In this document: piece after piece, positions 869 to 25,500 of the stretch | How the letters are laid out: every line of letters begins with the position of its first letter | Position numbering within the stretch: position 1 is the first letter of the stretch | Origin: Calothrix sp. HK-06 | GTDB taxonomy: Bacteria > Cyanobacteriota > Cyanobacteriia > Cyanobacteriales > Nostocaceae | Assembly: GCF_001904745.1 (NCBI RefSeq) | Contig: NZ_MRCD01000101.1 | Coordinates: forward strand, 1-32,476 | Direction: 5' to 3' | Length of the DNA stretch: 32,476 nt | The notes under the pieces: model-generated | The model's database searches: none | Told to the model about the DNA's origin: nothing | The model's input: the letters and a program-made list of their open reading frames with translations, nothing else | Translations under genes and position numbers: made by a program

Positions 869-1033
869 TAACGAGTTAATTTAATCGTCAATATATATAA
901 CTGGTTATTACCATTTAACTAGCTATCGTAACTAGATTTAATTATCTTATCGTTGGTTAGGATTAACCCGGTAAGTATCTATAGATGCTTTATGGTGATG
1001 TTAGCGTAACTCGTTAAACATAATAACTAGATT
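869..1033. repeat. Cluster of TAAC-NN-GTTA palindromes
   Basis: Palindromic or near-palindromic boxes occur at 869 (TAACGAGTTA), 898 (TAACTGGTTA), 916 (TAACTAGCTA), 929 (TAACTAGATT), 1007 (TAACTCGTTA) and 1024 (TAACTAGATT). The same motif family flanks the protelomerase gene (7378-7435 and 9311-9394). Several copies are preceded by CG, as in two of the operator copies at the protelomerase gene. This looks like a multi-copy binding site for one DNA-binding protein; which protein is unknown. Confidence 0.5.
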
Positions 1034-7377: not shown

Positions 7378-7435
7378 TCTGGTTATTATTAATATAACCA
7401 GTTACTTTATTTATGTCAATAGTCGTAACCAGTTA
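7378..7435. promoter_or_regulatory. TAACCAGTTA operator cluster, SAP-like gene promoter
   Basis: Perfect TAACCAGTTA at 7395-7404 and 7426-7435, with centres 31 bp apart. A further half-site, CTGGTTAT at 7379, forms an 8-bp inverted repeat with ATAACCAG. They lie 80-135 bp upstream of the minus-strand start at 7301 and about 90 bp downstream of the protelomerase stop. The 31-bp spacing recurs at 9354/9385. Confidence 0.55.
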
Positions 7436-7525: not shown

Positions 7526-9289
7526 TCAAAATTTAATTACCGAGGTAATATCGCCTTTACCTTTGTTGTGATACTTACCCAATCCATACTTGGTGTTATG
7601 GTCGTCAATCGAAGTTTGATATCGTTGCATCCAATCAGTTACCTTTAACCCGTTGCAGCCTGATATCTGTCTTAGAGATTGATTAGTAATAGCCCATCTA
7701 GTATCGTTACTTGGTTGAGCGTCGTTGTAGTCTGTGATAGCTACAAAAGCCCGTCTGATTTTCTCATCTACGGCGGCATCACCGCGTAGTTTTTTGAGTT
7801 CATCGCTGTCCATATTTTCATAATCACGCTCTACCTCTGGTTTTGGCTTGCGAGTAACGGACGTAGGAGTTGGGGAAGGGGAAGCGCTAGCGGTTGGTTG
7901 TGGTGATTGTGCTTGTGGCTGCATTTCTGCCAAAACTTCTACAATCATTGCTCTGAGTGAATCTTTGGTAACTGGTTCGGTTTGTTGCTGTGCTTGGGTA
8001 TTCACGGTTACTTGCTCCTCTAATTGTTTTTGTAACTGGTTAACTTGTTCTGTTGCTTGCTGTAACTTGGCTTGAGCGTCCATTAGCTGTTTTTGTAGTG
8101 TTTCTAGTTCGTCAGATTTCTTAACTAGTTGAGTGACAACTGATTGCTGATTAGGTAAATTCCACTTGGTTTGTAGCTCTTTAATGTGGTTAAAATCCTG
8201 TTGAGTGACGCGCACTTGCAAAGCTTTCTCAGACTTGGTGATTTTTTTAGCTGCTATTTGTGGGAATGAAACAGGCTTTGTAACGTAGTAATCAGCATAA
8301 CCAACAGTCGTAGCTAGCTTCATCAGTTCCTTATCTGTAAGCCTTTCATTTGGGGTAATGTGACCTAACATCAAGCCATAGAAGTAAATCTTGGCGCCAA
8401 CTGACCCCTTACAATCGCGCTCAGTAACCAATGCTGCATATGCTGCACGTAGAGCTTTGCAGTCGTTTTGGTCTTGGTCGAGACGGAAGTTTAATAGCGG
8501 TTCTTTGTCATCACGCCCACCAAAATACTCTTGGACTACACGACGTAGTGAGTTACCGCGTCTGTTTTCAATGGTTCGGTTTTGTGCTGACAAATCATCA
8601 GGAAATTCTTTTTTAACTTCAGCCAGTAAAGACTTGCATGATACATCTTGACGTAGTTTAGATAGGCATCTAATTAGATAATTAGCAGGGTACAGAGTAG
8701 AGATTGTAACCACTGGCTTTTCACCGCGTTTTTTACCTTGTCCCTCAAATGTCAGCTTATATTCTTCACCTTCAATTGCTTTGAATTGACCGCGCGCGAG
8801 AATTTCATGGGGACGGCGCCCAGTAGCTGCAATTAAACCAACAGCCAGTTCGTGAGGATTAATACTTAAGAGCAATTTTCCGGTTACTTCGAGGTAAGTA
8901 TCTGGTTCGACTTCTTGTCCTTTAAAACCTTCACTATCAACAGATGTAATGCGGTCGGTAACTCTTGATGTTTCGTTGCGCTCTTTCCAATCATCCTTAG
9001 TTAAGCCACAAAGTAAAACCGCGTAATGCTTCAATTCATAACCCTTAACGTTACCTTCACCGTCATGCTTGGGTATCGAGTCAGCGTTTTTACCTTGCTC
9101 TAACTTGATAGTGGCAAACTTCTTGTAAAAACCATATCGACTTAAATATGTACCTAGGGTGACGCGATTGTAAGCTTTGTTTGCCCACTCGTTAAACTGC
9201 TCACAGTGTGGCTTAATCTCCTCAAAGGTATACAGTTCCTTGGTTGCATTGAACAGCTTATCGATTTGTTCCTGTAGCGCTTTTGACAT
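7526..9289 (-). CDS. Telomere resolvase (protelomerase) family protein
   Basis: A 587-residue protein with the signature of the protelomerase branch of tyrosine recombinases, which cut a palindromic target and reseal each half as a covalent hairpin. Visible elements: GLIAATGRRPHEIL (151-164, active-site Arg), LTFEGQGKKRGEK (179-191, beta-hairpin Lys), KALRAAYAAL (278-287, Arg281), GLMLGHITPNE (305-315, His310), then YADYY (331-335), the likely nucleophile region. The His-to-Tyr distance (21-25 residues) is longer than I recall for TelN, TelK or ResT, so the exact nucleophile is uncertain. Residues 390-430 form a coiled coil, 455-485 a Pro/Ser/Thr linker, and 500-587 a separate basic C-terminal module. 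The gene has TAAC-NN-GTTA operators in its promoter. No candidate hairpin target was located. It could also act on circular DNA as a resolvase. Confidence 0.72.
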   Translation of the reverse strand: MSKALQEQIDKLFNATKELYTFEEIKPHCEQFNEWANKAYNRVTLGTYLSRYGFYKKFATIKLEQGKNADSIPKHDGEGNVKGYELKHYAVLLCGLTKDDWKERNETSRVTDRITSVDSEGFKGQEVEPDTYLEVTGKLLLSINPHELAVGLIAATGRRPHEILARGQFKAIEGEEYKLTFEGQGKKRGEKPVVTISTLYPANYLIRCLSKLRQDVSCKSLLAEVKKEFPDDLSAQNRTIENRRGNSLRRVVQEYFGGRDDKEPLLNFRLDQDQNDCKALRAAYAALVTERDCKGSVGAKIYFYGLMLGHITPNERLTDKELMKLATTVGYADYYVTKPVSFPQIAAKKITKSEKALQVRVTQQDFNHIKELQTKWNLPNQQSVVTQLVKKSDELETLQKQLMDAQAKLQQATEQVNQLQKQLEEQVTVNTQAQQQTEPVTKDSLRAMIVEVLAEMQPQAQSPQPTASASPSPTPTSVTRKPKPEVERDYENMDSDELKKLRGDAAVDEKIRRAFVAITDYNDAQPSNDTRWAITNQSLRQISGCNGLKVTDWMQRYQTSIDDHNTKYGLGKYHNKGKGDITSVIKF

Positions 9290-9310
9290 AATCTAGTTAC
9301 CTTGGTTGCT

Positions 9311-9394
9311 TAACTAGTTACAATATATTTGACTGGTTACGTTAATGTCAAGATAACCAGTTATAAATATTTTGGTAATTATCGTAACTGGTTA
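9311..9394. promoter_or_regulatory. Four TAAC-NN-GTTA boxes in protelomerase promoter
   Basis: Boxes at 9311-9320 (TAACTAGTTA, perfect palindrome), 9331-9340 (GACTGGTTAC), 9354-9363 (TAACCAGTTA) and 9385-9394 (TAACTGGTTA). Their centres are about 20, 23 and 31 bp apart, close to whole helical turns, which suits cooperative binding. They begin 22 bp upstream of the start codon and would cover a promoter there, so repression or autoregulation is likely. Confidence 0.6.
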
Positions 9395-9416
9395 TTGTGA
9401 GGTTATCTATGATAAA

Positions 9417-9436
9417 GGGGAGAGTGATTACTCCCC
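9417..9436 (-). terminator. Terminator after 172-residue gene
   Basis: GGGGAG (9417-9422) and CTCCCC (9431-9436) pair with an eight-base loop. On the minus strand TTTAT follows, 28 bases past the stop of the gene ending at 9464. It separates the upstream operon from the protelomerase promoter. Confidence 0.6.
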
Positions 9437-9463
9437 TGTTTTGCGGTTCGGTGGACAACCTCT

Positions 9464-9982
9464 CTACTCAAAATCAAGCTTTTCTTCTAATGCCGCAATT
9501 TGGGACTTATAAAAACTAATTTCACGCTCTATAGCCGCGCGTATTTTTTCAGGTGAAAGAAGTTCAATTTTGAACTCATCAATATTTTCTAACTTTTCTG
9601 TTGTCAGTGATTGAACCAAGTAAGCCCACCCTTCGCCTCCATCAATCAGCGAGGATGAATGGTAATAGTTCATTCCTACTATTTTGCCTTGTGTGGTTAA
9701 TTGTCCAAATTTGAACTTGGGACTCTTCCAGTTTTTTGGAATATCAATGGCTGTTGTGGTTTCAGTCGTGGCGCCAGCTAAAATTTCTATAGCAATAGAA
9801 ATTGAGCGAGCGCAGTCGCTAAGGCTGAGTTCTCTATTGTTATGTGCCTCGGCACATAAATAATCATGTACAGCAGAAAAGTCTATTTGAAAGCTTCCTA
9901 CAAGTCCTCGGATAATTTCTAAGTACAAAACTACTTCTTCGCAAGTACATTCATCTTCTGCCAATGCTTTGTTAAGTTCCAT
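9464..9982 (-). CDS. Conserved-looking hypothetical protein, 172 residues
   Basis: I do not recognise a family. The N-terminal half is helical and acidic (KALAEDECTCEEVVLYLEII). The centre (about 88-125: FKFGQLTTQGKIVGMNYY, then GWAYLVQSL) resembles a small SH3-like or tudor-like beta-barrel, as in proteins with a G-x-V-x-G turn followed by WxYxV. The C-terminus is a helix or short coiled coil (EREISFYKSQIAALEEKL). AAAGGGAC lies upstream of the ATG. It begins 34 bp after the large ATPase gene and is followed by a terminator, so it is likely the last gene of that transcript. Confidence 0.6.
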   Translation of the reverse strand: MELNKALAEDECTCEEVVLYLEIIRGLVGSFQIDFSAVHDYLCAEAHNNRELSLSDCARSISIAIEILAGATTETTTAIDIPKNWKSPKFKFGQLTTQGKIVGMNYYHSSSLIDGGEGWAYLVQSLTTEKLENIDEFKIELLSPEKIRAAIEREISFYKSQIAALEEKLDFE

Positions 9983-10016
9983 TAGTTTGTCCCTTTGATT
10001 GATTAAATAGTTTGGT

Positions 10017-12341
10017 TCAATTACCTTTCAAGCTGTTTTCAGAAGTCGATTTGTTGCAAGAGTTACATAGGTAATAATTAATACCTCTATTCTTCTTAGA
10101 CTTGAATAAAACTCCCTCATTGCACTTTGGGCACTTAGACCCAACATACCCGGAAGATGGCATCTGAGATGCAACGCTATCATCAGTGTTTGATGTATTG
10201 ATGGGTGTTTCAGATGCAGTGTATGCCATCTCGGTGGCATTGCTTGATGTAAGTGTATGCACTGGGAACAATTGGTCATATGTGTAACTACCAAAGCTAG
10301 GTAATTCAATGAAGTATGGTTTCTTGTCTGGCTCGACTACAAAGCCAAATCGGTAAGATTTAGGGTCTGTTTTATCAAGCCCCAATTCTTCATTTTTTTG
10401 ATTACAAAATTCGGTCAATTTATCTGCAATATTCTTAAGTCGGGTGAGTTCATCTGTAGTAAAACGGTTCGAGTTGGTTATTGCATCGTAGGCATTGGCG
10501 CCAATGTGAAGGTTAACCGCATTGTTCCAGTCGCTTCGGTCCATACCTGGGTATTCGGAAACGTTCGCATTTTGTCCCACAAATATGGCGCCTAAGTTCT
10601 GGTGACTAACCTGTTTAATAATGAAGTTGACGTTATTACCAATGATTGACCGCTTACCTTTGGTGTGGCCCATAGTCGAATCAATCTCATCAAACAGCCA
10701 TATCTCGAACTGTTCCTTGCTTTCATCACCCGACGTGCGCGCGTCCAGCTTAGAAGCTAGTGCCTTAATACCCTTCTCACTGTCTTGATGACTTGTACCA
10801 ACTGCGGGTATAGTCCAGTAATTTTTTAAGCTGTCGTGCTGAGGGTTAAATAACTTTGCGGCGCCTGGTCGATGCTTCAAAATTGCAACTGCTAAATTTT
10901 CCGCAGTTGGCGACTTGCCAGACTCAGAGCCGCCTGTGATTCTAACGCGCGTCCAATTTTTGACAGTTTTCTCGAACTTATCCGCAGTAATCCAAAGTCT
11001 AGAAACATCTTTTTCAACTGGCTTATTTTTAACCGGGTACCACTTTTGTATATCTACATGCCAGTGCCCACAACGTTCAGAGCGTTCAAACTTTGGCGTA
11101 TTAAGTGCGTTGGAAAGTTCTTTTAACTTTTCTGGTAGCGCTAACTCTTTATCATTAAGCATATCGCTACTAATAAACCTCTGACCGTTACGGCTAGTCG
11201 AGAATAACAGCTTATAACCTGTATCAGTCTGTAACCAATCAATTACATCAAGCCGATAACCGATAGAAAGATAGTAGTTAGCTATGGAATTACTCACCCT
11301 TGCTTGTTCTGTGTCACCTGGTAGTAAAAAAGGCTTTTCTAACTCCTGTAATCGTGCTAGTAAATCATTTATTTGCAAGTCTCTTTCTTGTAATTTCTCT
11401 GCCGCATATTTGGCGGTTTGTAGTACGTCATCAAAATTTGATTGATAGCGTTCTATGTGTCCATTGTTTGCAATTACCCATTCCTGAGCTATGGCTCTAA
11501 CATTTGCTTGATGTTCTAGTTTAAGATTCTCTACCGTTACTCCCACATGTGACTCTAATGCTTGAATACTTGACTCATATTCATCCAAACTAACAGCATT
11601 CTCTAACAAACTATCAAGGTATCGAATAAGTATTGTTTGTGCTTTTACTCGCAGTTCAATACATCCGTTAATAACTTTCTCTTGTATGTCCATACCAACA
11701 TCTAATAGTTCGTTAAAACTTTCTATTTGTTCGTATTCTTCAAGCTTGTTGATGTAGCGGCGCCTAAAATTATCTATTTCAATATGAAGTTGTGCGTATT
11801 TGTCAGCTATATCTGGATAATTACGCTTTAAAGCTTCAATGTGTCCATCAAGCTTTTTAAAAGCAGTTGTATATGTAGTGCGAACAATGCTATAAGCCTC
11901 AGTAGTGTTGAATCTACCGATAATTTTTAACTTATTACTTAGTTCATTGTTGATAGTTTTACACTGTTCTAGCTCTAATGTCCTATGACTGAGTATAGTT
12001 ACAGCTTCTGACAATGCTTTATCAAGCGTATTACTTTTATCTTGTAGCTGGTTTAACTCACTTTGTAATGATGTAATTTTCTTTTCAAAACTACTTAATT
12101 CTGTATCTTTCTCTTTAAGTAAAGATTCGTGCTTATCCTTACTAGTTTTAGCTTGAGTAATGGCAGCACTAGTAATGTACTCACCTGCAATTATTCCACC
12201 AATTGATAAACCTAAGAATACCCTTGAAATATTCTTAAAATAATCGTTGTTGTGTGGTGTAAATATTGCAATGCTTGATGCTAGTCCCAAAGTAAAGCTA
12301 GCTATAAATAATCTATTTTTTGCCGTGTCAACAATAGCCAT
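10017..12341 (-). CDS. Membrane-anchored coiled-coil P-loop ATPase with zinc ribbon
   Basis: A 774-residue protein, family not recognised. Two hydrophobic segments (11-28, FIASFTLGLASSIAIF; about 40-58, VFLGLSIGGIIAGEYITSAA) form an N-terminal membrane hairpin. A long coiled coil covers about 60-330. A P-loop domain follows: Walker A GGSESGKSP (about 469-477), Walker B EIWLFDEIDS (about 545-554) and a downstream IFVGQNANV segment resembling a sensor motif. The C-terminus (about 734-765) has CPKC and CNSC pairs, a topoisomerase-type zinc ribbon. GGAG precedes the ATG. The order membrane hairpin-coiled coil-ATPase suggests a DNA-handling or tethering motor (HerA/FtsK- or coupling-protein-like by analogy only). 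It sits in a four-gene set with DNA-binding and coiled-coil proteins. A role in segregation or DNA transfer is inference. Confidence 0.7.
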   Translation of the reverse strand: MAIVDTAKNRLFIASFTLGLASSIAIFTPHNNDYFKNISRVFLGLSIGGIIAGEYITSAAITQAKTSKDKHESLLKEKDTELSSFEKKITSLQSELNQLQDKSNTLDKALSEAVTILSHRTLELEQCKTINNELSNKLKIIGRFNTTEAYSIVRTTYTTAFKKLDGHIEALKRNYPDIADKYAQLHIEIDNFRRRYINKLEEYEQIESFNELLDVGMDIQEKVINGCIELRVKAQTILIRYLDSLLENAVSLDEYESSIQALESHVGVTVENLKLEHQANVRAIAQEWVIANNGHIERYQSNFDDVLQTAKYAAEKLQERDLQINDLLARLQELEKPFLLPGDTEQARVSNSIANYYLSIGYRLDVIDWLQTDTGYKLLFSTSRNGQRFISSDMLNDKELALPEKLKELSNALNTPKFERSERCGHWHVDIQKWYPVKNKPVEKDVSRLWITADKFEKTVKNWTRVRITGGSESGKSPTAENLAVAILKHRPGAAKLFNPQHDSLKNYWTIPAVGTSHQDSEKGIKALASKLDARTSGDESKEQFEIWLFDEIDSTMGHTKGKRSIIGNNVNFIIKQVSHQNLGAIFVGQNANVSEYPGMDRSDWNNAVNLHIGANAYDAITNSNRFTTDELTRLKNIADKLTEFCNQKNEELGLDKTDPKSYRFGFVVEPDKKPYFIELPSFGSYTYDQLFPVHTLTSSNATEMAYTASETPINTSNTDDSVASQMPSSGYVGSKCPKCNEGVLFKSKKNRGINYYLCNSCNKSTSENSLKGN

Positions 12342-12380
12342 TATTTTTACTCCAAGTTGACGTTTTATTAGGAGAATAAA

Positions 12381-12405
12381 AGCTAGATATCATCAGTATC
12401 TAGCT
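12381..12405 (-). terminator. Strong hairpin with T-run
   Basis: AGCTAGATA and TATCTAGCT form a perfect 9-bp stem with a seven-base loop. On the minus strand a TTTTATT tail follows. It lies between the 268-residue coiled-coil gene and the ATPase gene, so part of the transcription probably ends here. Confidence 0.7.
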
Positions 12406-12426
12406 TGTATATGCATGTAAACAGTG

Positions 12427-13233
12427 TTAGATAGCGTTAGTTAAATATTTACTAACTATCTCGTTAGTTTGTGCCTTTAGTGCCTCTATTTCTGCATTCC
12501 TTTTTTGTTCTGTTGCCTCTACTTTGGCTATAAGCTGTGATGTTTCCGTGCGTGTAGCCTGAGTAATAATCTGTTGCTGTTTTAGCCGTTCATCCGCTTG
12601 GTATAACTTCTCTCTATCAGAAGATAATTCAACATTTTGAGTATCAAACTTAGTAACCTCACGCTGTACTTTTACAGACTCAGTAGAAGATTTAATAATA
12701 GACTGTTGAGCTTTATGATACTCCTGTTTAGTCTTGCCAACTTCCCCTATATATTTGAATCCCGCTTGATACAATTGCATAGCTCTTGTAGCGCTAGCAT
12801 ATTGTTTTAATCCATCATTTAATTGTTGCTCTGAACACTCAGGTAAACCACTCGGATTTAATAAGTCTGTTGGTACAAGAGAATCAAATTTTAACTGAGG
12901 TATAGCTACACCACTATATACATCTGTAATCGGCTCTATTTGGGTATAAGAGCTATTAGTTTGTATGGTGGAATAATTACCACTAATTAAGCTATTACCA
13001 TTGCTAACAGTAGCGTCAATACCTTTATTGATTGCATTAGTTACTGGCTGTAAAACAGTTCCTACTGTATTTGCGACTTCGGCAGCTTTGGCGCCTACTC
13101 CCCTCATCGCGTCCATTCTTGCTTTTACTCGCGCTTGTACTAGTTCGTCTTGCTCCTTTCTAGCCTCTGCCTTGGCTTTAGCCTTCTCACCTGTCGGGTC
13201 GGTAATTGGAAAGTTTTTCTTTGCTCGTGCCAT
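12427..13233 (-). CDS. Coiled-coil hypothetical protein, 268 residues
   Basis: The ATG at 13233 (MARAKKNFPITDPTGEK) is chosen over the longer frame from 13302 because AGGGA lies 12 bases upstream and the preceding residues look untranslated. A basic and charged N-terminus (KAKAKAEARKEQDELVQARV) leads into an Ala/Val-rich helix (AAEVANTVGTVLQPVTNAI), a Ser/Thr/Asn-rich middle, and a long C-terminal coiled coil (about 170-265). No family is recognised. Its place between a HTH-like gene and the membrane ATPase suggests a shared complex. There is no signal peptide. Confidence 0.6.
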   Translation of the reverse strand: MARAKKNFPITDPTGEKAKAKAEARKEQDELVQARVKARMDAMRGVGAKAAEVANTVGTVLQPVTNAINKGIDATVSNGNSLISGNYSTIQTNSSYTQIEPITDVYSGVAIPQLKFDSLVPTDLLNPSGLPECSEQQLNDGLKQYASATRAMQLYQAGFKYIGEVGKTKQEYHKAQQSIIKSSTESVKVQREVTKFDTQNVELSSDREKLYQADERLKQQQIITQATRTETSQLIAKVEATEQKRNAEIEALKAQTNEIVSKYLTNAI

Positions 13234-13269
13234 AATTTTTAAATCCCTGAAGTCGTTTATCTGGGGGTG

Positions 13270-13303
13270 AGTGCTGGTGTAGTTTGGACGCTCTACCAGC
13301 ACT
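13270..13303 (-). other. 9-bp stem-loop in 5' leader
   Basis: AGTGCTGGT (13270-13278) and ACCAGCACT (13295-13303) form a perfect stem with a 16-base loop, 37 bp upstream of the chosen start of the coiled-coil gene and downstream of the 199-residue gene. No T-run follows. It could be a leader structure or an RNA-processing signal. Confidence 0.4.
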
Positions 13304-13355
13304 TAAAAATAAACTTGGTTTGGTTGTTGGTAAGCTTCGTTAAAGTTCATAAAAA

Positions 13356-13955
13356 TTAACGTTCAAAATCAGTAGTGTTTAAGACTTCGGAAACAGCTTG
13401 TTTAACCTCGACAGCGTAAGCGCTAGCGAATTGTTCCTTAAACCTTGCCCCAAACAGCTTTGCAAGGTTTTTAGCTAGTGTCGGTTGCTGTTGGTAAGCA
13501 TCCTGTAAGGTTTGTCTGGCATCCTCCAATACAACGCTTGAAGCCTGCAATTTCTCAGTAGCCAAAACGGCGTCTTTATCAGATGTGGCAAGTACCAAGC
13601 TTGATGACTGGCTTTTGGTTGTTGGATGTTGATTATTGTTGATGTGTACCTCACTCACCCATTGCTGAAAGCTTTTACCTGTGGCTATTTCGGTCTTCAA
13701 TACCTCCATCTGTTGAATACAAAATCGAGTGTATCGGACATACTTACCCGAACCAAACTTAAAATCTGATTCTGGTAGCCAACAGTAAGCTTCAATAATG
13801 ACTTTGAACCAAGTCTGAATAGTTTTTTTGTCAACCCGAAAGTAAGCGGCTAGCTCGCTGGAACTACGCGCTACATCTGCTATACCCTCTTGCGGTGATT
13901 CGTTTAGAGGGACATCAAATGATTGAAAGCTAGCTATTTCAAGTATTTCGCCCAT
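13356..13955 (-). CDS. HTH-type DNA-binding protein, 199 residues
   Basis: Residues 30-55 (ARSSSELAAYFRVDKKTIQT, then WFKVI) form a helix-turn-helix of the MerR/excisionase-like kind. The middle is linker-like with many Ser/Thr/Asn, and the C-terminal 60 residues are helical (ARQTLQDAYQQQPTLAKNLA). It resembles plasmid accessory regulators or adaptor proteins, but I cannot name a family. It is the first gene of the minus-strand block. It diverges from the RHH gene at 14136 across 180 bp that contain TGCA-type palindromes, which may coordinate the two. No Shine-Dalgarno sequence is evident. Confidence 0.6.
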   Translation of the reverse strand: MGEILEIASFQSFDVPLNESPQEGIADVARSSSELAAYFRVDKKTIQTWFKVIIEAYCWLPESDFKFGSGKYVRYTRFCIQQMEVLKTEIATGKSFQQWVSEVHINNNQHPTTKSQSSSLVLATSDKDAVLATEKLQASSVVLEDARQTLQDAYQQQPTLAKNLAKLFGARFKEQFASAYAVEVKQAVSEVLNTTDFER

Positions 13956-14026
13956 ATTTGCTTGTGAATTATATAGGTTGTAGAAACTCGCGGGAACTGC
14001 TGATAGGTCGTGCGAGTTGCCTTAAA

Positions 14027-14119
14027 ATGCAATATAGCATAAACTGCATATAATGCAATTAAAGACCTTTTGTCCAATAGCAGTATTAAGGCATGAAGTG
14101 CAAAAATATATGCACTGCA
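14027..14119. promoter_or_regulatory. TGCA-type palindromes between divergent genes
   Basis: ATGC-N6-GCAT at 14027-14040, TGCAT-N3-ATGCA at 14045-14057 and TGCACTGCA at 14111-14119 lie between the divergent starts at 13955 and 14136. The dyads suit an RHH or HTH repressor; the adjacent 56-residue RHH protein is the natural candidate. Confidence 0.5.
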
Positions 14120-14135
14120 AGCTTAAACTTCTTAT

Positions 14136-14306
14136 ATGGATGAATCTAAAGTTGTTGCTATTCGAGTAGAAATGCCAGATGAGCTAAGAAATCAGTTCAA
14201 ATCGGCTGTAGCTAGAGAGGGTAAAAATATGAAAGATGTTTTGTTGACCTTTATTAAGGAGTATGTAGCTAATCGCGAATCAAGCAAAGACAAAGGGGCC
14301 GCATGA
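14136..14306 (+). CDS. Small ribbon-helix-helix protein, 56 residues
   Basis: The reading starts MDESKVVAIRVEMPDELRNQ and contains GKNMKDVLLTFIKEYV. A beta-strand (VVAIRVEMP) is followed by two helices separated by a short turn, the Arc/ParG/CopG ribbon-helix-helix layout. Such proteins dimerise and bind palindromic operators. It could be a transcriptional repressor, an antitoxin without a visible toxin, or a ParG-like centromere binder. No ParA lies beside it; the ParA-like gene is 12 kb away. It probably binds the TGCA dyads just upstream. No Shine-Dalgarno sequence is visible. Confidence 0.65.
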   Translation: MDESKVVAIRVEMPDELRNQFKSAVAREGKNMKDVLLTFIKEYVANRESSKDKGAA

Positions 14307-14379
14307 GGAAGGGAAAATGGCTAAAAGAGAATGATTAAGTCTATACAACAAGAAAAAGTAACTATTATTGGTAAGCTTT

Positions 14380-15009
14380 ATGGCTCAAACCCTAATCAAA
14401 CCCGTTACCTACGAAGAGTTTATCGAATGGTATCCCAACGACGGGAAGCGGTACGAACTACACGATGGAGTAACTATTGAGATGGCGCCACCTACCGGAG
14501 ACCATGAAAAAGTTGTTGGGTTTTTAGCTGTAGAAATTGCCGTGCAACTCAGGCAGCTAAATCTACCCTACACCATCCCTAAAACCGCGTTTGTTAAAAC
14601 ACCATCCGCCAAATCAACTTACTCACCTGATGTATTGTTATTAAACCTTGACAATCTTGATAACGAACCTCTTTTCCAAAAAGAGTCAACAGTTACTCAA
14701 GCTGAATCCGTGCCTTTAGTAGTTGAAGTTGTCAGTACCAACTGGCGTGACGATTACCATAAGAAGTTTGCAGATTATGAAGAGATGGGCATTCCTGAGT
14801 TTTGGATTGCTGACTATAAAGGGTTGGGAGGACGGGAGTTTATCGGCGACCCTAAACAACCTACTTTTTTTGTCTGCGAGTTGGTCAATGGAGAATATGT
14901 AAGAAAAATGTACCGAGGCAGTGGCTTGATTATCTCCCCCACATTTCCTCAACTTAACCTTACCGCGCAACAAATTTTTGATTCGGCTCTGCCACAAGGT
15001 AATCAGTAA
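14380..15009 (+). CDS. Uma2 family (DUF820) PD-(D/E)XK nuclease-like protein
   Basis: A 209-residue protein with the typical Uma2 pattern: YEEFIEWYPNDGKRYELHDG at the N-terminus, then EMAPPTGDHEKV, SPDVLLLN (first acidic residue) and LVVEVVSTNWRDDYHKKFAD (E-x-V strand and lysine), ending in MGIPEFWIADY. The family is hugely expanded in cyanobacteria and assigned to the restriction-endonuclease fold, but its function in the cell is unresolved. ATG at 14380 fits family length; an upstream TTG at 14368 adds four unsupported residues. One GGCGCC lies in the gene, as in backbone genes. A terminator hairpin follows 170 bp downstream. Confidence 0.85.
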   Translation: MAQTLIKPVTYEEFIEWYPNDGKRYELHDGVTIEMAPPTGDHEKVVGFLAVEIAVQLRQLNLPYTIPKTAFVKTPSAKSTYSPDVLLLNLDNLDNEPLFQKESTVTQAESVPLVVEVVSTNWRDDYHKKFADYEEMGIPEFWIADYKGLGGREFIGDPKQPTFFVCELVNGEYVRKMYRGSGLIISPTFPQLNLTAQQIFDSALPQGNQ

Positions 15010-15177
15010 CATGTTTACACTTAAACTACTGACAGCAATATCCTTTAATCGCGTGTTAACAATTGAGGTGGCGCCGCGCAGATTAGATTTTACATCACTG
15101 GCTTACGCTTCCCTCTCCCCTTCTCCCCTCTGGCTAATGGGTAAAAATTCCTGTTACTTACTCTCTTAAGCCACTTC

Positions 15178-15213
15178 AAAGCGGTAGCCTACATATTGTT
15201 GGCGCCGCTTTTT
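15178..15213 (+). terminator. Terminator downstream of Uma2 gene
   Basis: AAAGCGG (15178-15184) pairs with CCGCTTT (15205-15211), and the T-run continues for two more bases. The 20-base loop contains a GGCGCC. The spacing and tail suit a rho-independent terminator on the plus strand. Confidence 0.5.
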
Positions 15214-15379
15214 AGTAAATGCCTGTTTCTTACTTATACGAGTGCTATTTTGCTACACCTAGTGGTAAAGCCTTATTGAGAAAAAGAAACATTTTTTACT
15301 TTGTTGGCTACGGGGAATTATTTTTCTTGTCTTACTTTGACAGAGTTGTGATATATTCACAAGAAGAATAAAAAATCAC

Positions 15380-15430
15380 CCCCCAACAACACCTATTTCT
15401 AAACGCCTTAAATCTGGTAGTTGTTGGGGG
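15380..15430 (+). terminator. 11-bp inverted repeat ahead of small RHH gene
   Basis: CCCCCAACAAC (15380-15390) and GTTGTTGGGGG (15420-15430) pair perfectly with a 29-base loop, followed by ACTTTTG. It lies 23 bp upstream of the 46-residue gene. It could end upstream transcripts or form an attenuator in that gene's leader. The rest of 15010-15453 shows no gene I can support. Confidence 0.5.
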
Positions 15431-15453
15431 ACTTTTGCGTGTGGAGTTTTTTT

Positions 15454-15594
15454 ATGGATAACACTGTTACTTTCCGACTTTCATCACAAGAAAAAGAGCA
15501 ACTAGCAAAGTGTGACCCTAACGGCAAAATCTCTGCTGCGGCTCGTGAAGCGGTTCGTGTTTTGATTCAAGCTCAAAACTCGGAAAAAAAATGA
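15454..15594 (+). CDS. Tiny RHH-like protein, 46 residues
   Basis: The reading begins MDNTVTFRLSSQEKEQLAKC and ends SAAAREAVRVLIQAQNSEKK. A strand (TVTFRLS) followed by helix-turn-helix segments fits a minimal ribbon-helix-helix fold. It is the first gene ahead of the replication region and may control copy number or its own transcript, by analogy with CopG-type repressors. That role is inference. A GC-rich hairpin stands just upstream and an A-rich-loop hairpin (CCAGCA/TGCTGG) just downstream of the stop. Confidence 0.5.
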   Translation: MDNTVTFRLSSQEKEQLAKCDPNGKISAAAREAVRVLIQAQNSEKK

Positions 15595-15653
15595 CCACGA
15601 TAAAAAGCCAGCAAAAAAAATGCTGGTAGCAGTCCCAAAGCTTTTTGAGTGAC

Positions 15654-15787
15654 GTGTGTTAGCCTTTCCTGGCAATTTCAAACAGCCACAAAGGGCGTTT
15701 CTCAGGCGCCCACACTGGAATCTCTACTCAGCAGATTCCGATTAGACTCTTTATAGAATCTTTCGTATGCTTACTAGGCTAACACAC
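15654..15787 (+). ncRNA. Candidate structured RNA in rep leader
   Basis: A perfect 12-bp terminal stem (GTGTGTTAGCCT 15654-15665 with AGGCTAACACAC 15776-15787) encloses 110 bases holding further hairpins: TGGC/GCCA with an 11-base loop, GGGCG/CGCCC with a 9-base loop, and a perfect 7-bp GGAATCT/AGATTCC with a 9-base loop. This nested multibranch arrangement has no coding explanation and sits 76 bp ahead of the rep operon. It may be a leader element, a copy-control RNA or the target of one. The strand is assumed from the operon; the dyad is equally foldable on the other strand. Confidence 0.5.
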
Positions 15788-15863
15788 TGTTTACTTACCT
15801 ACTTACTGTCATTGAGTCTGTAAAAGCTTTTGGGATTGCTCCAACAAAATATCAGGAGCGACT

Positions 15864-16097
15864 ATGCCAAAAACTTCTTCCCGTTACCCAGCAAGGGTTT
15901 TGCGGATAAAACCAATCGGTCTTATTTTACCGCAAAGCTCTAATGATAGCAATAGCACTAATAAACAGTGCCAGATATTCAGTCTCATTAAACTTAGGCG
16001 CCGTAAAGACGCGCTGGAATTGTTAGAAAGTCGTGGTTATTACGATGACGTAGCAATTTTCCTAATCAACTGCTTGCAACTTGAGGTGGTGCTATGA
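15864..16097 (+). CDS. Small basic protein, first gene of rep operon
   Basis: A 77-residue protein of unrecognised family. The N-terminus is basic (SSRYPARVLRIKPIGLILP), a Ser/Asn linker follows, and the C-terminal half is helical (LIKLRRRKDALELLESRGYY, DDVAIFLINCLQLEVV). AGGAG stands 6 bases upstream of the ATG. Its stop overlaps the next start (ATGA at 16094), so translation is coupled to the downstream genes. The high pI and position suggest a nucleic-acid-binding role in replication control, by inference only. Confidence 0.6.
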   Translation: MPKTSSRYPARVLRIKPIGLILPQSSNDSNSTNKQCQIFSLIKLRRRKDALELLESRGYYDDVAIFLINCLQLEVVL

Positions 16098-16273
16098 AAA
16101 CACGCCACCCTCACAGCCAAAGCAGAATTGCTTTAAATTCACCATGTCGAGCGTGTGGTTACAGGCATGGCTTGCTAATCGTTAGGTTTGAGAATGACCT
16201 TGGTTTTATTCGATGTGGTCGATGTGACGGCGCCCAGTACCCAGTAGAGATGATTCAGGAGGTAGCGGCATGA
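16094..16273 (+). CDS. Small zinc-ribbon protein, 59 residues
   Basis: Two CxxC knuckles, CRAC (residues 19-22) and CGRC (43-46), are separated by about 20 residues containing beta-strand character (HGLLIVRFEND). This is a compact zinc ribbon of the kind found in primase, transcription-factor and topoisomerase tails. It overlaps both neighbours by ATGA and has GAGGTGG upstream of the ATG. Being coupled to rep, it may be a replication accessory factor. One GGCGCC lies in the gene just after the second knuckle. Confidence 0.6.
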   Translation: MKTRHPHSQSRIALNSPCRACGYRHGLLIVRFENDLGFIRCGRCDGAQYPVEMIQEVAA

Positions 16274-16482
16274 TTACCTCGAAAGAATGGTTTACGTCTG
16301 AATCGGTTGGCTACCTCAGTGAATGCTTGCTGGCTTGCTCTAACCCGCAAATGCTAGCTGATTTACGCTCATTCGTTCCTGCCGCTGCATTAAGGGAAGC
16401 TGCTAAGAAATTGCCAAATGACCACAAAAAACAAATACGCGCGTGGGTTGAGCATCTAAATCAACTGGAGGTAGCAGCATGA
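16270..16482 (+). CDS. Small helical protein coupled to rep
   Basis: A 70-residue, all-helical protein (SVGYLSECLLACSNPQMLAD, REAAKKLPNDHKKQIRAWVE) of unrecognised family. It has a strong AGGAGG 8 bases upstream of the ATG, and its stop overlaps the rep start (ATGA at 16479). In the CyRepA1 plasmid pSYSA of Synechocystis, rep is also preceded by a small cotranscribed gene; whether this one is related cannot be judged by eye. It probably paces translation of rep. Confidence 0.6.
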   Translation: MITSKEWFTSESVGYLSECLLACSNPQMLADLRSFVPAAALREAAKKLPNDHKKQIRAWVEHLNQLEVAA

Positions 16483-19400
16483 ATCCTAAGCACCTCCAAG
16501 AATTTCAAAATAGCGCTATCGATAGCGATATCATCGAGCTTAATTTTAAATCGGTCGAACGTACAGAAGTACTATCAAGGCTGATACCAGATATTAATAT
16601 TGCTTCTGGCAAAGTCCACGCTGATGCTCAGTGGAGATGGATAAATCACCGCTACCAGGATTTAGGCTTGTCTGGTTGGTGGGCTTCTGGCATCGACCTG
16701 TTAACGATGCAACCGAGCGAATGGGGTTGTTTCAAGTCGGACCAGCCACGCATCGACCAAGAAAAATCTGAATTATTCTTGGCGCCACAATCAGGAATTG
16801 CCCCTAAAGTACACAAACAACTAATTGAGCTAACCCCGTGGATGGCTTGGGGTATCACGGTAAACCTGAAGCATATAAAATATGAGCATCCATCAAAAGT
16901 TCAAACCGAGATTTTTGCTCTCTGGGTTCCCGCACGTGTTTGGCAGAAAGTCGCGTTACGGTACAATGTTCATCTGCCAGATGATTATAAGAATTTACCT
17001 CTAAGTGCTTTTTGGCAATGGGTAATCGATAACCCAGGAATCCCAATTGTTCTAACTGAAGGCGCCAAAAAAGCAGCGGCAATACTTTCATGTGGGTATG
17101 TCGCACTAGCTCTCCCAGGTGTTAACGGTGGGTATCGACAGCCTAAAAATGATTTCGGGGAAAATGACGGACTACCTTTTTTGATTAACCCACTAAAGAT
17201 ATTTGCTCAAAAAGGACGCAGAATTTACTTCTGTTTTGATGCTGATGATAAGCAACGTACAGTTCGTAATGTAAATTTTGCCCTACATAAAACAGCTAAA
17301 CTATTTAATGCTGCTGGTTGCGAAGTTAAAGTTATTACCTGGAATCCATTACTAGGGAAAGGTATTGACGATGTACTTGCTGATACTGGCGCCGAACAAT
17401 TTGATGAACTTTATAAAAATGCGCTTGCTTTTAATGAGTGGCAATCACTCCAATTAAAACGATTAACCTATAAACCTAATCTAGTTTTAAATCAGCGTTA
17501 CTTAGGTGAAATTATCCTGCCTGCAAGTGCAAAGCTAATTGGCTTGAAGTCACCCAAAAACACAGGTAAAACCGAATTGATGAAATTTAATACGGCGCCT
17601 GTCATCCGCAGTGGGGAGAAATGCGTATTAGGTATAGTTCACCGCGTGCAGTTGGGATTGGGGACTGCTGACAGGTTGGGACTGTCCTTTGTCACAGAAA
17701 TTACTGGTGACTGGGTAGATAAAGAAGTTGGTAAAGCTAATGGCTTTTTCTTATGTATAGATTCATTACATGCTTTATCTCAGGCACGATTTAATCCTGA
17801 TGATTATAAGGGTTGCTGGGTTATTCTTGATGAAGTAGTACAGTTAATCTGGCATTTGCTAACTGCCGAAACCGATGTTAAGAAAAATCGGGTTTTAATA
17901 ATCAAGAACTTAAAAAAATTACTACAAAACGCTGAAAAAATAATTATTGCTGATGCTGATTTAAATGATGCAGCTATTGATTTTATCCGTAGTTTAGTAG
18001 GTTATGACGTAGAGCCTTGGATTGTAGAGAACCAGTATAAATTTGAGAATCCTTGGAAAGTTTACGAGTTTACAGATAAAAACGCTTCTCCTTTAATTAA
18101 GAAGCTACTGGAAAGGCTTAAAGCTGGTGAGAAGCATATGCTTTGTGTTTCTGGTCAAAAGCATAAATCTAAATGGGGCAGCATCAATTTAGAAGAGTAT
18201 TTTAAAAAGAAAATACCAGGAATTAAAATACTCAGAATTGATTCTCAAAGTGTTACCAATCCGAATCATCCAGCTTTTAAATGCACCAACGATTTAAATA
18301 AAATATTGCTAGAGGGACAATATGATTTAGTAATTGCTACGTCAACAATTGAAACTGGTGTTGATATTAAAGTTAACGTGTTTGATGGCGTTTGGGGAAT
18401 ATTCCAAGGTATTCAAACCACAGATTCTGTAAGACAACATTTATCTAGATACCGCCTTCCTGTACCGCGTTACGTTTGGATTAAGCAAATTGGTATTAAC
18501 CGCGTGGGTAATGGCGCCACTACTGTTAAAGAGCTAATTGCAAGCGAGCGTAAGAAAGATAAGCTAACTATTAAACAATTAATAAGCATTGGGTTTGAGG
18601 AAACTATTAATGATGATTTTGAGCCTATTTGTGTTAGCACTTGGGCAAAGCTAGGATGTGTAATAAATCTTGGTATGAGAGATTACCGTAACCAAGTTTT
18701 AAATGATTTAAAGTATGAGGGGCACATACTTTTAAATGCTTCTGAAACTTTGCTGATGCCTACGCCAGACGAAGCCGAAATCGTTAATGACCAAGTAACA
18801 GAAGTTCGTGATAACAATTATCAAGCATATAGAGAAAGTGTTGCTTCTTCCGATAGTCCTACATCTATTGAATTAGAAAAACTAGCACGTAAGCAAGAAA
18901 AAACAGACGAAGAAAGATTAATTGAGCATAAAGGACAGCTAGAAAATAAATATTTAGTTAATGTTACTCCAGAATTAATTGAGAAAGATGATAACGGCTG
19001 GTATTCACAAGTTAGATTACATTATTACTTTACTGAAGGTAGAGATTATTTACCTGACCGTGATAAAAAGATAATGAGTAATGCTCTTTCTGGAGGAGAC
19101 GGGCATTATTTTTTGATTGACACTAACTCTAATCAGATGGGAGTAAAGATAGCTACTCTTGATTACATTGGATTAGCCAATTTGTTAGAAGGGGGGGAAT
19201 TTAACGAATCTCACCCAACTATCCAAGATATATTTACTAAATGTAAAAACAATTCTTGGGAAATTAAAACACTGTTAGGACTTGATTTTTCTAAAACTAG
19301 CAAACCGATAGAATTGGTTCAGCGATTACTGCAAACCATTGGCTATAAAATGCCATTCCTACGACGTGAAGGCGGGAAAGGAAATCAAAAACGAATATAC

Positions 19401-20042
19401 GGTACACCTGCTGCTAACTTTGAAGTCAACGACGATGGAAAATTAATCTATAAAGGCGGGAAAGCTGTCCCTATATCTGATGGTCGTGAGGAAGTGTTTA
19501 TAAAGTGGTTAGAGCGTGATGAGTTGGCACGTCAAAAAGCAGTTGAGCAGAAAGCTAAATTGCAGGAAACTCCCCCAACACCTGCCGAACTCGCAGCTGC
19601 TCAACTCCGCGCGCTTACCAATTGGGGAGACTGCACCCTAAACCAAGAAGAAATCGACGCTGGTTGGGAACTACTAACCTTACAGGAGCAAAACGTTTTG
19701 CATCAAATTTTTGAAGACTGGCGCCAGTCTCAGGAACAACAGCCAGGAAATACAAACGACTCCCAACAAGCAGAAACAGGCGCCGACGAGGTATTCCAGT
19801 GGACTGGATGCCAATTTAAGCTAGTGACCAATTTGAGCCTAGACATTCAATTTCTACAGGAGCAATACACAAGTTTAGCCAAGTGGGTACAAGGTTTACC
19901 GTCTGACGTACTTACAGCTGATTCTGAACCAACCTATAACGGAATGCGGCGCGTATGGGTGGGCAATGCAGGCGCCTTAAAGTCGATTCCTTGCGAGTGG
20001 CTAGAGTTCGTTGGTTATCCGTTGCAGCCAGTTGCCGCTTAA
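16479..20042 (+). CDS. CyRepA1-family plasmid replication protein
   Basis: An 1187-residue primase-helicase-like initiator. About residues 185-300 form a TOPRIM/DUF3854 domain: IPIVLTEGAKKAAAIL (catalytic Glu in TEGAKK, about 193), LPGVNGGY, IYFCFDADDK (about 249-258) and GKGIDDVL. A superfamily-2-like helicase core follows, with KSPKNTGKTEL (Walker A, about 356-366), CWVILDEVV (Walker B, about 444), ATSTIETGVDI (about 619) and RQHLSRYRLP (arginine-finger-type motif, about 651). The C-terminal third is variable, with a Gln-rich linker. CyRepA1 proteins support replication of cyanobacterial plasmids. The gene is fourth in a translationally coupled operon. Seven GGCGCC boxes within it mark it as backbone. 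It is followed by a long inverted repeat. Confidence 0.88.
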   Translation: MNPKHLQEFQNSAIDSDIIELNFKSVERTEVLSRLIPDINIASGKVHADAQWRWINHRYQDLGLSGWWASGIDLLTMQPSEWGCFKSDQPRIDQEKSELFLAPQSGIAPKVHKQLIELTPWMAWGITVNLKHIKYEHPSKVQTEIFALWVPARVWQKVALRYNVHLPDDYKNLPLSAFWQWVIDNPGIPIVLTEGAKKAAAILSCGYVALALPGVNGGYRQPKNDFGENDGLPFLINPLKIFAQKGRRIYFCFDADDKQRTVRNVNFALHKTAKLFNAAGCEVKVITWNPLLGKGIDDVLADTGAEQFDELYKNALAFNEWQSLQLKRLTYKPNLVLNQRYLGEIILPASAKLIGLKSPKNTGKTELMKFNTAPVIRSGEKCVLGIVHRVQLGLGTADRLGLSFVTEITGDWVDKEVGKANGFFLCIDSLHALSQARFNPDDYKGCWVILDEVVQLIWHLLTAETDVKKNRVLIIKNLKKLLQNAEKIIIADADLNDAAIDFIRSLVGYDVEPWIVENQYKFENPWKVYEFTDKNASPLIKKLLERLKAGEKHMLCVSGQKHKSKWGSINLEEYFKKKIPGIKILRIDSQSVTNPNHPAFKCTNDLNKILLEGQYDLVIATSTIETGVDIKVNVFDGVWGIFQGIQTTDSVRQHLSRYRLPVPRYVWIKQIGINRVGNGATTVKELIASERKKDKLTIKQLISIGFEETINDDFEPICVSTWAKLGCVINLGMRDYRNQVLNDLKYEGHILLNASETLLMPTPDEAEIVNDQVTEVRDNNYQAYRESVASSDSPTSIELEKLARKQEKTDEERLIEHKGQLENKYLVNVTPELIEKDDNGWYSQVRLHYYFTEGRDYLPDRDKKIMSNALSGGDGHYFLIDTNSNQMGVKIATLDYIGLANLLEGGEFNESHPTIQDIFTKCKNNSWEIKTLLGLDFSKTSKPIELVQRLLQTIGYKMPFLRREGGKGNQKRIYGTPAANFEVNDDGKLIYKGGKAVPISDGREEVFIKWLERDELARQKAVEQKAKLQETPPTPAELAAAQLRALTNWGDCTLNQEEIDAGWELLTLQEQNVLHQIFEDWRQSQEQQPGNTNDSQQAETGADEVFQWTGCQFKLVTNLSLDIQFLQEQYTSLAKWVQGLPSDVLTADSEPTYNGMRRVWVGNAGALKSIPCEWLEFVGYPLQPVAA

Positions 20043-24400: not shown

Positions 24401-24446
24401 CCATATACACCTGGTTATATACCCTGTGTAGATTTTAGGATATATT
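24401..24446. promoter_or_regulatory. Divergent promoter region, RHH gene and recombinase
   Basis: About 110 bp separate the RHH start (24357) and the recombinase ATG (24469). Near-palindromic GGTTATATACC (24413-24423) and flanking ATATACAC and TGTGTAG resemble the GGTATA-type operators of the other RHH genes. The assignment is tentative. Confidence 0.3.
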
Positions 24447-24468
24447 GCGTGTTTACTCTCACCCACAC

Positions 24469-25500
24469 ATGGGAGAATTAGTATTTAGAATCTCAGTTCC
24501 AGATAAAAAAGTGCGCGAAACGTTTTCTAGTAGGGGTACAAATGACCTTCAACTTTTTGAACCAGTGCCAGCTAATTTGCATCCAGCACTGGTATATTTG
24601 AATGGGTTGAGCGAAGGTTCTCGACCAACAATGCATCACGCCCTTGATGCAATCGCCGGATTGTTAACCGATAAGAAATGTTCGGCGATGACTTTGGATT
24701 GGAGCAAGTTACGATATCCCCATACGGTGGCAGTGCGGAGTGAGTTGAAAAAGCAATTTGCACCGGCGACGGCGAAGAAAATGTTGTGTGCTTTACGCCG
24801 GGTGTTGAAGGAAGCTTACAAGTTGGGGTTGATGAGTCTTGAGGATTATGTACGCGCGACAACATTAGAACCAATTGATATGCCGACCACCAAACCTAGA
24901 GGTCGTGCCTTGAGTCTTGAAGAAATTGCCACATTAATGGATGAAGTTTTAGGAGAAAAAAGCTGTGCCATTGATGTACGGGATGCGGCGTTGATTGCGA
25001 TTTTACGGGGTAGCGGGCTGAGACGCAATGAGGTTATAAACCTTAAAGTCAAAGATTTTGAAAAAAGTACTGGCGCCTTGGAGATACAATTTGGTAAAAG
25101 AGGGTCATACAGAAAAGTTTATTTGCCATCCGACGCAATTAGTTTGGTTGAAGCTTGGCTTGATGTGCGAGGAAGAAAACCGGGACCACTAATATGTCAT
25201 GTTAGAAAAGGGGGAATAGTTGAGCTGCGTCCCCTGTCCCCAGATGCGGTGTTGAAAATATTGAGAAGTCGGGGTAATAGGGCTGGTCTATCTCAGTTTT
25301 CTCCCCACGACTTTCGCCGTACTTTTTGTTCCGACCTTTTGGATGCTGGGGTTGATATTGCCACAGTCCAAAAACTTGCGGGTCATTCTTCTCCTGCGGT
25401 GACATCTAAATATGATAGAAGGGAAGAAGAAACTAAGCGCAAAGCTGTGCAGAAGTTGTCGATTCCCCTACGGCGCTCTATAGATAACCCAAAATCATAA
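24469..25500 (+). CDS. Tyrosine recombinase / integrase, XerC/D-like
   Basis: A 343-residue protein from ATG 24469 (a TTG at 24445 would add eight residues). It has an N-terminal SAM-like core-binding region (LVYLNGLSEGSRPTMHHALD) and a catalytic domain with the full active site. Numbered from the TTG: Arg193 in GSGLRRNEV, Lys near 218 in FGKRGSYRKV, HDFRR with His288 and Arg291, GHSS with His314, and Tyr323 in SKYDRR. Such enzymes resolve plasmid multimers or integrate elements. It lies upstream of the iteron/ParA module and beside a frameshifted RHH gene. One GGCGCC within it suggests a backbone gene. No att site was recognised; an 8+1+8 palindrome lies 92 bp downstream. Confidence 0.9.
   Translation: MGELVFRISVPDKKVRETFSSRGTNDLQLFEPVPANLHPALVYLNGLSEGSRPTMHHALDAIAGLLTDKKCSAMTLDWSKLRYPHTVAVRSELKKQFAPATAKKMLCALRRVLKEAYKLGLMSLEDYVRATTLEPIDMPTTKPRGRALSLEEIATLMDEVLGEKSCAIDVRDAALIAILRGSGLRRNEVINLKVKDFEKSTGALEIQFGKRGSYRKVYLPSDAISLVEAWLDVRGRKPGPLICHVRKGGIVELRPLSPDAVLKILRSRGNRAGLSQFSPHDFRRTFCSDLLDAGVDIATVQKLAGHSSPAVTSKYDRREEETKRKAVQKLSIPLRRSIDNPKS

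What the first reader, a model, noticed from the sequence alone, without database searches (positions are those of the whole stretch)
7526..20042. Protelomerase homologue and CyRepA1 replication protein on one cyanobacterial replicon
The 587-residue protein shows the Arg, Lys, Arg and His signatures of telomere resolvases, on the same window as a CyRepA1 initiator, a ParA cassette and a recombinase. If active, the plasmid could be linear with covalently closed hairpins, or the enzyme could resolve replication products of a circular plasmid. The long His-to-Tyr spacing and separate C-terminal module suggest a divergent branch.
Basis: partly seen in the sequence, partly recalled or inferred. Interest (0 to 1): 0.85.

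Follow-up and report, generated by a model that had tools for sequence, protein, structure and literature searches.

The report
Hairpin-telomere enzyme on cyanobacterial plasmid
This stretch of a cyanobacterial plasmid encodes an enzyme of the kind that makes closed hairpin ends on linear DNA, and relatives of the plasmid can be seen in public assemblies as linear molecules with matching hairpin-like ends; whether this particular plasmid is linear remains to be shown.

Summary
ORF 7526-9289(-) is a telomere resolvase (PF16684, E 2e-22). A family profile finds TelA, TelK and ResT in the PDB and aligns R159/K186/K278/R281/H310/Y331 with TelA's active site. CyRepA1 (16479-20042) is also real. Ten of 18 relatives' sequences compared have inverted ends or fold-back palindromes. 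Scanning 84,980 species' genomes for the 24-bp telomere palindrome gave 18 stretches on 14 contigs, all titled cyanobacterial; in 17 the palindrome is perfect to the last base of the contig, in one to the base before. All 12 searchable genomes carry a resolvase; 12 of 14 contigs carry it themselves. New here: TAACNNGTTA, common beside telomeres, also lies upstream of the resolvase gene in 31 of 46 distinct loci, three times in the window, suggesting autoregulation. Hairpin plasmids with AAATTAACRGAC ends were reported for Nostoc N6 and NCBI already annotates 'protelomerase'; no paper I opened joins the two. The window shows no telomere: it is an incomplete contig, and its closest relative is recorded circular. 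Linearity of this replicon is inferred (about 0.7), not shown.

The parts
7526..9289 (-). telomere resolvase (protelomerase) gene, 587 aa
   Evidence: PF16684 E 2.1e-22; A1 profile hits TelA E 7e-18, TelK 1e-16, ResT 7.5e-8
8354..8917 (-). catalytic domain, residues 125-312
8297..8299 (-). codon of the inferred nucleophile Tyr331, aligned with TelA Tyr405
   Evidence: alignment; Y in 29 of 30 sequences; not tested biochemically
7985..8149 (-). predicted long helix / coiled coil, residues 381-435
   Evidence: AF2 secondary structure, block pLDDT 73-83 over 381-430 in a model of mean 56
7529..7807 (-). conserved C-terminal module, residues 495-587
   Evidence: alignments A1/A2; PHROG 34828 E 5e-9 over 492-579
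9311..9320 (.). TAACNNGTTA site upstream of the resolvase ATG
9354..9363 (.). TAACNNGTTA site upstream of the resolvase ATG
9385..9394 (.). TAACNNGTTA site upstream of the resolvase ATG
7395..7435 (.). pair of TAACCAGTTA sites between the resolvase stop and the start of the 199-aa gene 6702-7301
869..1016 (.). cluster of three TAACNNGTTA sites near the left contig end; partner copy near the right end of contig C89
9464..9982 (-). 172-aa ORF between resolvase and 774-aa gene, no family match
10017..12341 (-). 774-aa protein with coiled-coil matches and a P-loop-like motif (read by eye); relatives on 17 of 23 resolvase-bearing replicons
   Evidence: family matches are weak
12427..13302 (-). 291-aa protein of the same module
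13356..13955 (-). 199-aa HTH-like protein, weak family matches only
15010..16478 (.). gap upstream of CyRepA1 holding the window's cumulative GC-skew minimum (16143): candidate origin, weak
   Evidence: 12 of 500 block shuffles as deep; in pNPM8 the minimum lies far from CyRepA1, so this is inference
16479..20042 (+). CyRepA1 plasmid replication protein, 1187 aa
   Evidence: NF042913 E 1e-128
26074..26886 (+). ParA-type ATPase
   Evidence: PF13614 E 4e-36
24445..25500 (+). ordinary tyrosine integrase, separate from the resolvase
   Evidence: PF00589 E 7e-30

Best explanation
The gene encodes a hairpin telomere resolvase of a cyanobacterial clade of mostly plasmid-borne enzymes. Most likely mechanism: CyRepA1 starts replication at an internal origin; forks copy through the closed hairpin tips and create inverted-repeat junctions (..GTCYGTTAATTT|AAATTAACRGAC..); a resolvase dimer binds each junction, cuts both strands with Tyr331 around the central TTTAAA (6 bp apart, by analogy with known resolvases), folds each strand back and reseals it, releasing linear monomers with closed ends. 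TAACNNGTTA sites beside many telomeres and in the resolvase promoter suggest that the enzyme also binds its own promoter and limits its own synthesis. Shown: the domain and catalytic residues; palindromic or inverted ends and a shared tip motif in many relatives; co-occurrence of enzyme and palindrome. Inferred: cutting, the exact cut site, the origin, autoregulation, and linearity of the window's own replicon, whose tips need not carry exactly this motif.
For: PF16684 E 2.1e-22. Profile hits to TelA, TelK and ResT with catalytic residues in register; Foldseek of a modest domain model gives protelomerases as its first 8 hits, next Cre at E 0.7. 10 of 18 distinct sequences compared show inverted ends or fold-backs; pNPM8, pNPM9 and pNsp_d carry the half-site at both ends. 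24-bp palindrome in 18 stretches against 0.004-0.03 expected from base composition; perfect to the contig's last base in 17 of 18, one base short in L118. PF16684 in 12 of 12 searchable palindrome genomes against 15 of 386 in a phylum sample that includes the window's genome, on the same contig for 12 of 14 contigs. In the plasmid collection the palindrome hits 5 cyanobacterial records, all 5 among the resolvase carriers. Nostoc N6: the three plasmids called linear in PMC5987646 are the three N6 records that match. ATCC 53789: both linear plasmids carry a protelomerase. TAACNNGTTA within 200 bp upstream of the resolvase ATG in 31 of 46 distinct loci (33 of 48 rows), 8.95 per kb against 0.36 overall; close pairs of it occur at only 4 places in the own genome, 3 in the window, control 0. 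Contig C91 of the same genome has a resolvase and 699-bp inverted ends.
Against: The window holds no half-site: its best score is 10.5, inside the range of 20 shuffled maxima (7.1-16.3), while the 14 tips that trained the matrix score 20.5-32.3. It has no terminal inverted repeat, and the own genome has no core palindrome with up to one mismatch. 8 of 18 sequences compared show no inverted ends, the window among them; several are contig fragments. The exact 12-mer is missing at the ends of C91, AP018302, AP018305, AP025026 and pNsp_f, and G010:C5 begins one base short of it. The closest relative (AP025026, 76-80% identity) is recorded circular and has no inverted ends, though its right end begins with telomere-like inner sequence. 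Carriers recorded circular: CP117767 (partial gene), AP018300, NC_019775, CP091924, although NC_019775 has about 620-bp inverted arms. 15 of 48 loci lack the promoter motif, including four with the gene at 48-50% identity. AF2 models are poor (pLDDT 56 and 61).
Confidence: 0.72

Rival explanations
1. The window's replicon is circular: the lineage closed its ends, and the resolvase is a leftover or resolves dimers at an internal site.
For: Closest relative AP025026 recorded circular, without inverted ends; no telomere in the window; other carriers recorded circular.
Against: The gene is intact with all six catalytic residues, keeps three promoter motifs and neighbouring module genes. Records called circular can hide linear ends: AP018215 has perfect palindromes at both record ends, AP018302 and AP018305 have inverted ends, pNPM9 is linear in the paper but circular in PLSDB.
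Confidence: 0.2
2. The enzyme works mainly in trans, for other linear plasmids of the cell; the window may be an integrated or rearranged fragment.
For: The cell has three PF16684 genes. A Coleofasciculus contig (L128) has the telomere but its genome's resolvases lie on another contig. AP018300, a 312-kb plasmid, carries the gene beside an imperfect 527-bp palindrome.
Against: The window has its own CyRepA1, ParA and module genes; the resolvases of C28 and C91 are only 33-36% and 24-32% identical to it over the aligned parts, so shared telomere specificity is doubtful.
Confidence: 0.1
3. It is an ordinary tyrosine integrase.
For: Shared catalytic chemistry; Foldseek lists Cre after the protelomerases.
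Against: No PF00589 match at E<=1, strong PF16684 match; the 7 PDB profile hits below E 0.01 are all protelomerases or ResT.
Confidence: 0.02

Closest known systems
Linear hairpin plasmids pNPM8, pNPM9, pNPM10 of Nostoc sp. N6 (PMC5987646; passages seen)
   Same: Same resolvase family (47-51% identity), AAATTAACRGAC at each end, inverted terminal repeats; pNPM8 also has CyRepA1 and ParA.
   Different: Hairpins there were inferred from reads; the window lacks ends. The words protelomerase, resolvase and telomere do not occur in that paper's main text.
TelA of Agrobacterium (PMC3558466; passages seen), TelK, ResT
   Same: Catalytic domain and active-site residues align.
   Different: Lys at the TelA Tyr363 position, about 10 more residues between His and Tyr, a predicted coiled coil and a C-terminal module; TelA has 442 residues against 587 here.
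N15-type linear plasmid phages
   Same: Weak protein similarity (N15 TelN 33% over 32% of the query); the same resolution logic (recalled).
   Different: No phage structural family among the window proteins scanned (7 against PHROGs, 19 scans against Pfam, one of them not from the window) beyond weak coiled-coil type matches; the telomere pattern gave no match in viral contigs.
CyRepA1 plasmids such as pSYSA (PMC10899382; passages seen)
   Same: Same Rep family.
   Different: pSYSA is described there with a theta-type model; that paper's main text does not contain 'linear', 'hairpin' or 'telomere'.

Membership tests
Telomere resolvase (PF16684) | catalytic-domain profile above the curated cut-off | tested here: met
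   80 bits against 27
Telomere resolvase (PF16684) | active-site Arg, Lys, Arg, His, Tyr in register with TelA | tested here: met
   R159, K186, R281, H310, Y331; each in 29 of 30 sequences
Telomere resolvase (PF16684) | fold of the catalytic domain | tested here: inconclusive
   Domain model pLDDT 61; top 8 Foldseek hits are resolvases, but TM by query length about 0.4 and rmsd 11-16
Telomere resolvase (PF16684) | palindromic target on the same replicon | tested here: inconclusive
   Absent from the incomplete window; present in many relatives
Telomere resolvase (PF16684) | cutting and hairpin formation | not testable with these tools
   Needs purified protein
Hairpin-ended linear plasmid | covalently closed ends | not testable with these tools
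   No reads available; contig ends look like repeat breaks
Hairpin-ended linear plasmid | terminal inverted repeats | tested here: inconclusive
   None in the window, but the contig is incomplete
CyRepA1 plasmid | NF042913 above cut-off | tested here: met
   431 bits against 200
Ordinary tyrosine integrase | PF00589 match of the 587-aa protein | tested here: not met
   No match at E<=1

The most novel reading that the evidence does not exclude
The resolvase promoter is a decoy telomere: TAACNNGTTA sites, often about 21 bp apart, let the enzyme repress itself, and telomeres compete for it, so enzyme supply follows the number of ends. A second resolvase type (pNsp_f) has a different end motif, and copies of that motif lie 140 and 177 bp upstream of its own gene; the same motif lies upstream of the gene in both other close relatives of that type.
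Probability: 0.45. Interest if true: 0.72.

Novelty: new variant of a known kind. Interest (0 to 1): 0.63.

Why it matters
Telomere resolvases are best known from Borrelia, Agrobacterium and a few phages (recalled). Here a cyanobacterial branch comes with its probable target sequence, many natural variants and a probable regulatory site, so the enzyme, its DNA specificity and its control become directly testable, and hairpin-ended linear plasmids may be more common in cyanobacteria than records labelled circular suggest. It would also give a natural toolkit for linear DNA in photosynthetic hosts.

Tried and rejected
Looked for a telomere in the window by half-site search, palindrome search and a PWM: none. 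Tried to find the window's ends elsewhere in its genome: the left end lies in a TPR-repeat family (38 matches, itself included); the last 55 bases equal the start of C137 reversed and resemble the starts of four other contigs and the end of C144, so both look like assembly nodes. The closest relative's last 500 bases have no match in the own genome. The half-site in the own genome is near chance (4 hits, control 2), and the C30 hit is not palindromic. No palindromes and no relatives found in viral contigs. 27 Acinetobacter 18-mer matches at E about 8, under annotated hypothetical proteins, rejected as chance. Ordinary integrase rejected. The full-length AF2 model was too poor to search. GC-skew minima as an origin test: strong shuffles in 5 of 8 other replicons, but the minimum does not sit beside CyRepA1 in pNPM8 (37089 against 14410-18237), so I give it little weight. 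Considered that contigs C4 and C89 are two arms of one linear replicon because they share an inverted 300-bp segment near their ends: possible, not shown.

Full report
What is there. The window is a whole contig (C4, 32,476 bp) of a 9.99-Mb, 243-contig genome; the plasmid records with relatives are cyanobacterial, mostly Nostoc, Fischerella and Calothrix (15 records). The 587-aa ORF (7526-9289, minus strand) matches PF16684 ResT-TelK_cat, E 2.1e-22, and several relatives are already annotated 'protelomerase family protein'. CyRepA1, a ParA-type ATPase and a separate tyrosine integrase are present.

The enzyme. A 30-sequence profile finds TelA (E 7e-18), TelK (1e-16) and ResT (7.5e-8) in the PDB. 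With the 20-residue tag described in PMC3558466 (passages seen), the alignment puts R159, K186, K278, R281, H310 and Y331 on TelA R255, K286, Y363, R366, H394 and Y405. R159, K186, R281, H310 and Y331 are each kept in 29 of 30 sequences, K278 in 26 of 30; the one sequence without them is L039. AF2 was weak (pLDDT 56 full length, 61 for residues 118-345); the domain model's first 8 Foldseek hits are all resolvases, with low TM-scores.

The ends. Self-comparison of 18 distinct sequences carrying relatives or fragments of the gene, the window included (20 rows, two being repeats), shows inverted ends of about 0.2 to 2.9 kb in seven (pNPM10, AP018302, AP018305, AP018215, G010:C5, G087:C6 and the own genome's C91) and perfect or near-perfect fold-backs in three (CP040280, G090:C170, G079:C3); AP018215 has perfect palindromes at both record ends. 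Eight show neither: the window, C28, C119, AP025026, G062:C260, G051:C86, G077:C154 and a 20-kb part of G093:C22; several of these are fragments. Fourteen tips of ten replicons read AAATTAACRGAC with at most one deviation; two of them (C052_G, C057_I) had been found with the palindrome itself. Ends without the exact 12-mer: C91, AP018302, AP018305, AP025026 and pNsp_f; G010:C5 begins one base short of it. PMC5987646 (passages seen) reported this motif and read-inferred hairpins for three linear plasmids of Nostoc N6; those three are the only N6 records that match the enzyme. I did not check that N6's seven circular plasmids are held in the collection, and short-type resolvases would be missed by that query.

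Independent test. The 24-bp palindrome GTCYGTTAATTTAAATTAACRGAC was sought in genome contigs (84,980 species; contigs under 3 kb not held): 18 stretches on 14 contigs, all with cyanobacterial titles; 0.004-0.03 expected from base composition. In 17 of 18 the palindrome is perfect to the contig's last base, in L118 to the base before it; one of the 17 (L126) is a 7,884-bp contig that is one perfect palindrome. Eight of the 18 contig ends were confirmed against stretches fetched by place; the others follow from locus lengths. Four contigs have it at both ends. Contig lengths place it on the palindrome contig in 11 of these 12 genomes, and tblastn adds L114: 12 of 14 contigs. The exceptions are L126 and L128. 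Relatedness of the genomes inflates such counts.

Regulation. TAACNNGTTA occurs 9 times in the window (0.97 in shuffles): three within 105 bp upstream of the resolvase ATG, two between the resolvase and the 199-aa gene, one inside the gene, three at 869-1016. Within 200 bp upstream of the resolvase ATG it occurs in 33 of 48 loci (31 of 46 without two duplicates), 8.95 per kb against 0.36 per kb overall, frequently about 21 bp apart; the same motif lies beside many telomeres, though AP018305 and C91 have none. It is missing upstream in 15 of 48, including AP018302, AP018305, G010:C5 and L018. In the whole own genome, close pairs occur at 4 places, three in the window and one near the end of C89; control 0. 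pNsp_f, a linear plasmid with a short-type resolvase, shows a different repeated end motif (TATAGGGATA) that also lies 140 and 177 bp upstream of its gene. The same motif lies 76 and 154 bp upstream of the gene in the two closest relatives of that type, NC_019775 and CP091924, whose record ends do not show it. So the parallel at the ends is n = 1.

Context. A relative of the 774-aa protein accompanies the enzyme on 17 of 23 replicons tested, CyRepA1 on 8 of 23; three of the 23 were partial and many are draft contigs. The window's GC-skew minimum lies at 16143, in the gap upstream of CyRepA1 (12 of 500 block shuffles as deep); the same test was strong in 5 of the other 8 replicons and weak in 3, and the minimum is not always near the replication gene.

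What it is not. The window shows no telomere, the own genome has no core palindrome with up to one mismatch, and both window ends look like repeat breaks. The nearest relative, AP025026, is recorded circular, though its right end resembles the inside of a telomere lacking the first 12 bases. So linearity of this replicon is inferred.

Literature. Ten searches on telomere resolvase, protelomerase, linear plasmid, hairpin, terminal inverted repeat, PF16684, CyRepA1, cyanophage and Nostoc or cyanobacteria. I opened passages of seven papers; none of those passages joins the cyanobacterial enzyme to these ends. The other papers were seen as listings only, and one search listed 15 of 1,730. The library lacks most subscription journals, so this is not proof. 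PMC7118181 (passages seen) lists two linear plasmids in ATCC 53789; both carry a protelomerase.

Noticed in passing
G229:C1 about 2110111-2116269 (loci L174, L177): A single-contig 4.68-Mb cyanobacterial genome holds a 6,159-bp, 99.98% palindrome with a PF16684 gene in each arm, in the stretch where GC skew, sampled in 20 windows and noisy, tends to turn from plus to minus. This is what a linear chromosome with inverted hairpin ends would look like if closed by the assembler; an inverted duplication is the plain alternative.
   Followed up: partly
L203:16533-17573 (NZ_CP046709, pNsp_f): Short (346-aa) resolvase type on a linear plasmid with a different end motif, copies of which lie upstream of its own gene.
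   Followed up: partly
L012 (G000:C91): 12,090-bp contig of the same genome with 699-bp inverted ends (99.7%) and a distant resolvase: probably another, nearly complete, linear plasmid.
   Followed up: partly
L010/L011 (G000:C28): A 33-36% identical resolvase beside 81% and 89% identical copies of the window's 774-aa and 291-aa genes, plus two stray C-terminal resolvase fragments.
   Followed up: partly
window 793-1094 and L112 (end of C89): A 300-bp, 93% identical segment with the TAACNNGTTA cluster lies near the left end of the window and, in the opposite direction, near the right end of C89.
   Followed up: partly
L128: Coleofasciculus contig with the hairpin palindrome; the two resolvases found in that genome lie on another contig, hinting at service in trans.
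   Followed up: partly
L046, L047, L044, L085, L204: Plasmid records labelled circular that show inverted or palindromic ends or, for L085 (pNPM9), the telomere half-site at both ends; topology labels look unreliable for this group.
   Followed up: partly
L206:8395-8921 (AP018300): Imperfect 527-bp palindrome beyond a resolvase gene on a 312-kb plasmid with photosystem genes: possible scar of a fused linear plasmid.
   Followed up: no
window 2738-5533, 29559-32204, 14368-15009: CHAT-nSTAND1-pentapeptide protein, AAA_35-GUN4 protein (PADLOC PD-T4-6 match) and a Uma2 protein matching PADLOC candidate PDC-S03.
   Followed up: no
window 25728-26040: Imperfect direct repeat (74%, about 127 bp) just upstream of the ParA gene, a possible partition site.
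   Followed up: no
control genome Synechococcus elongatus: The only one of 14 control genomes with a PF16684 match above cut-off.
   Followed up: no
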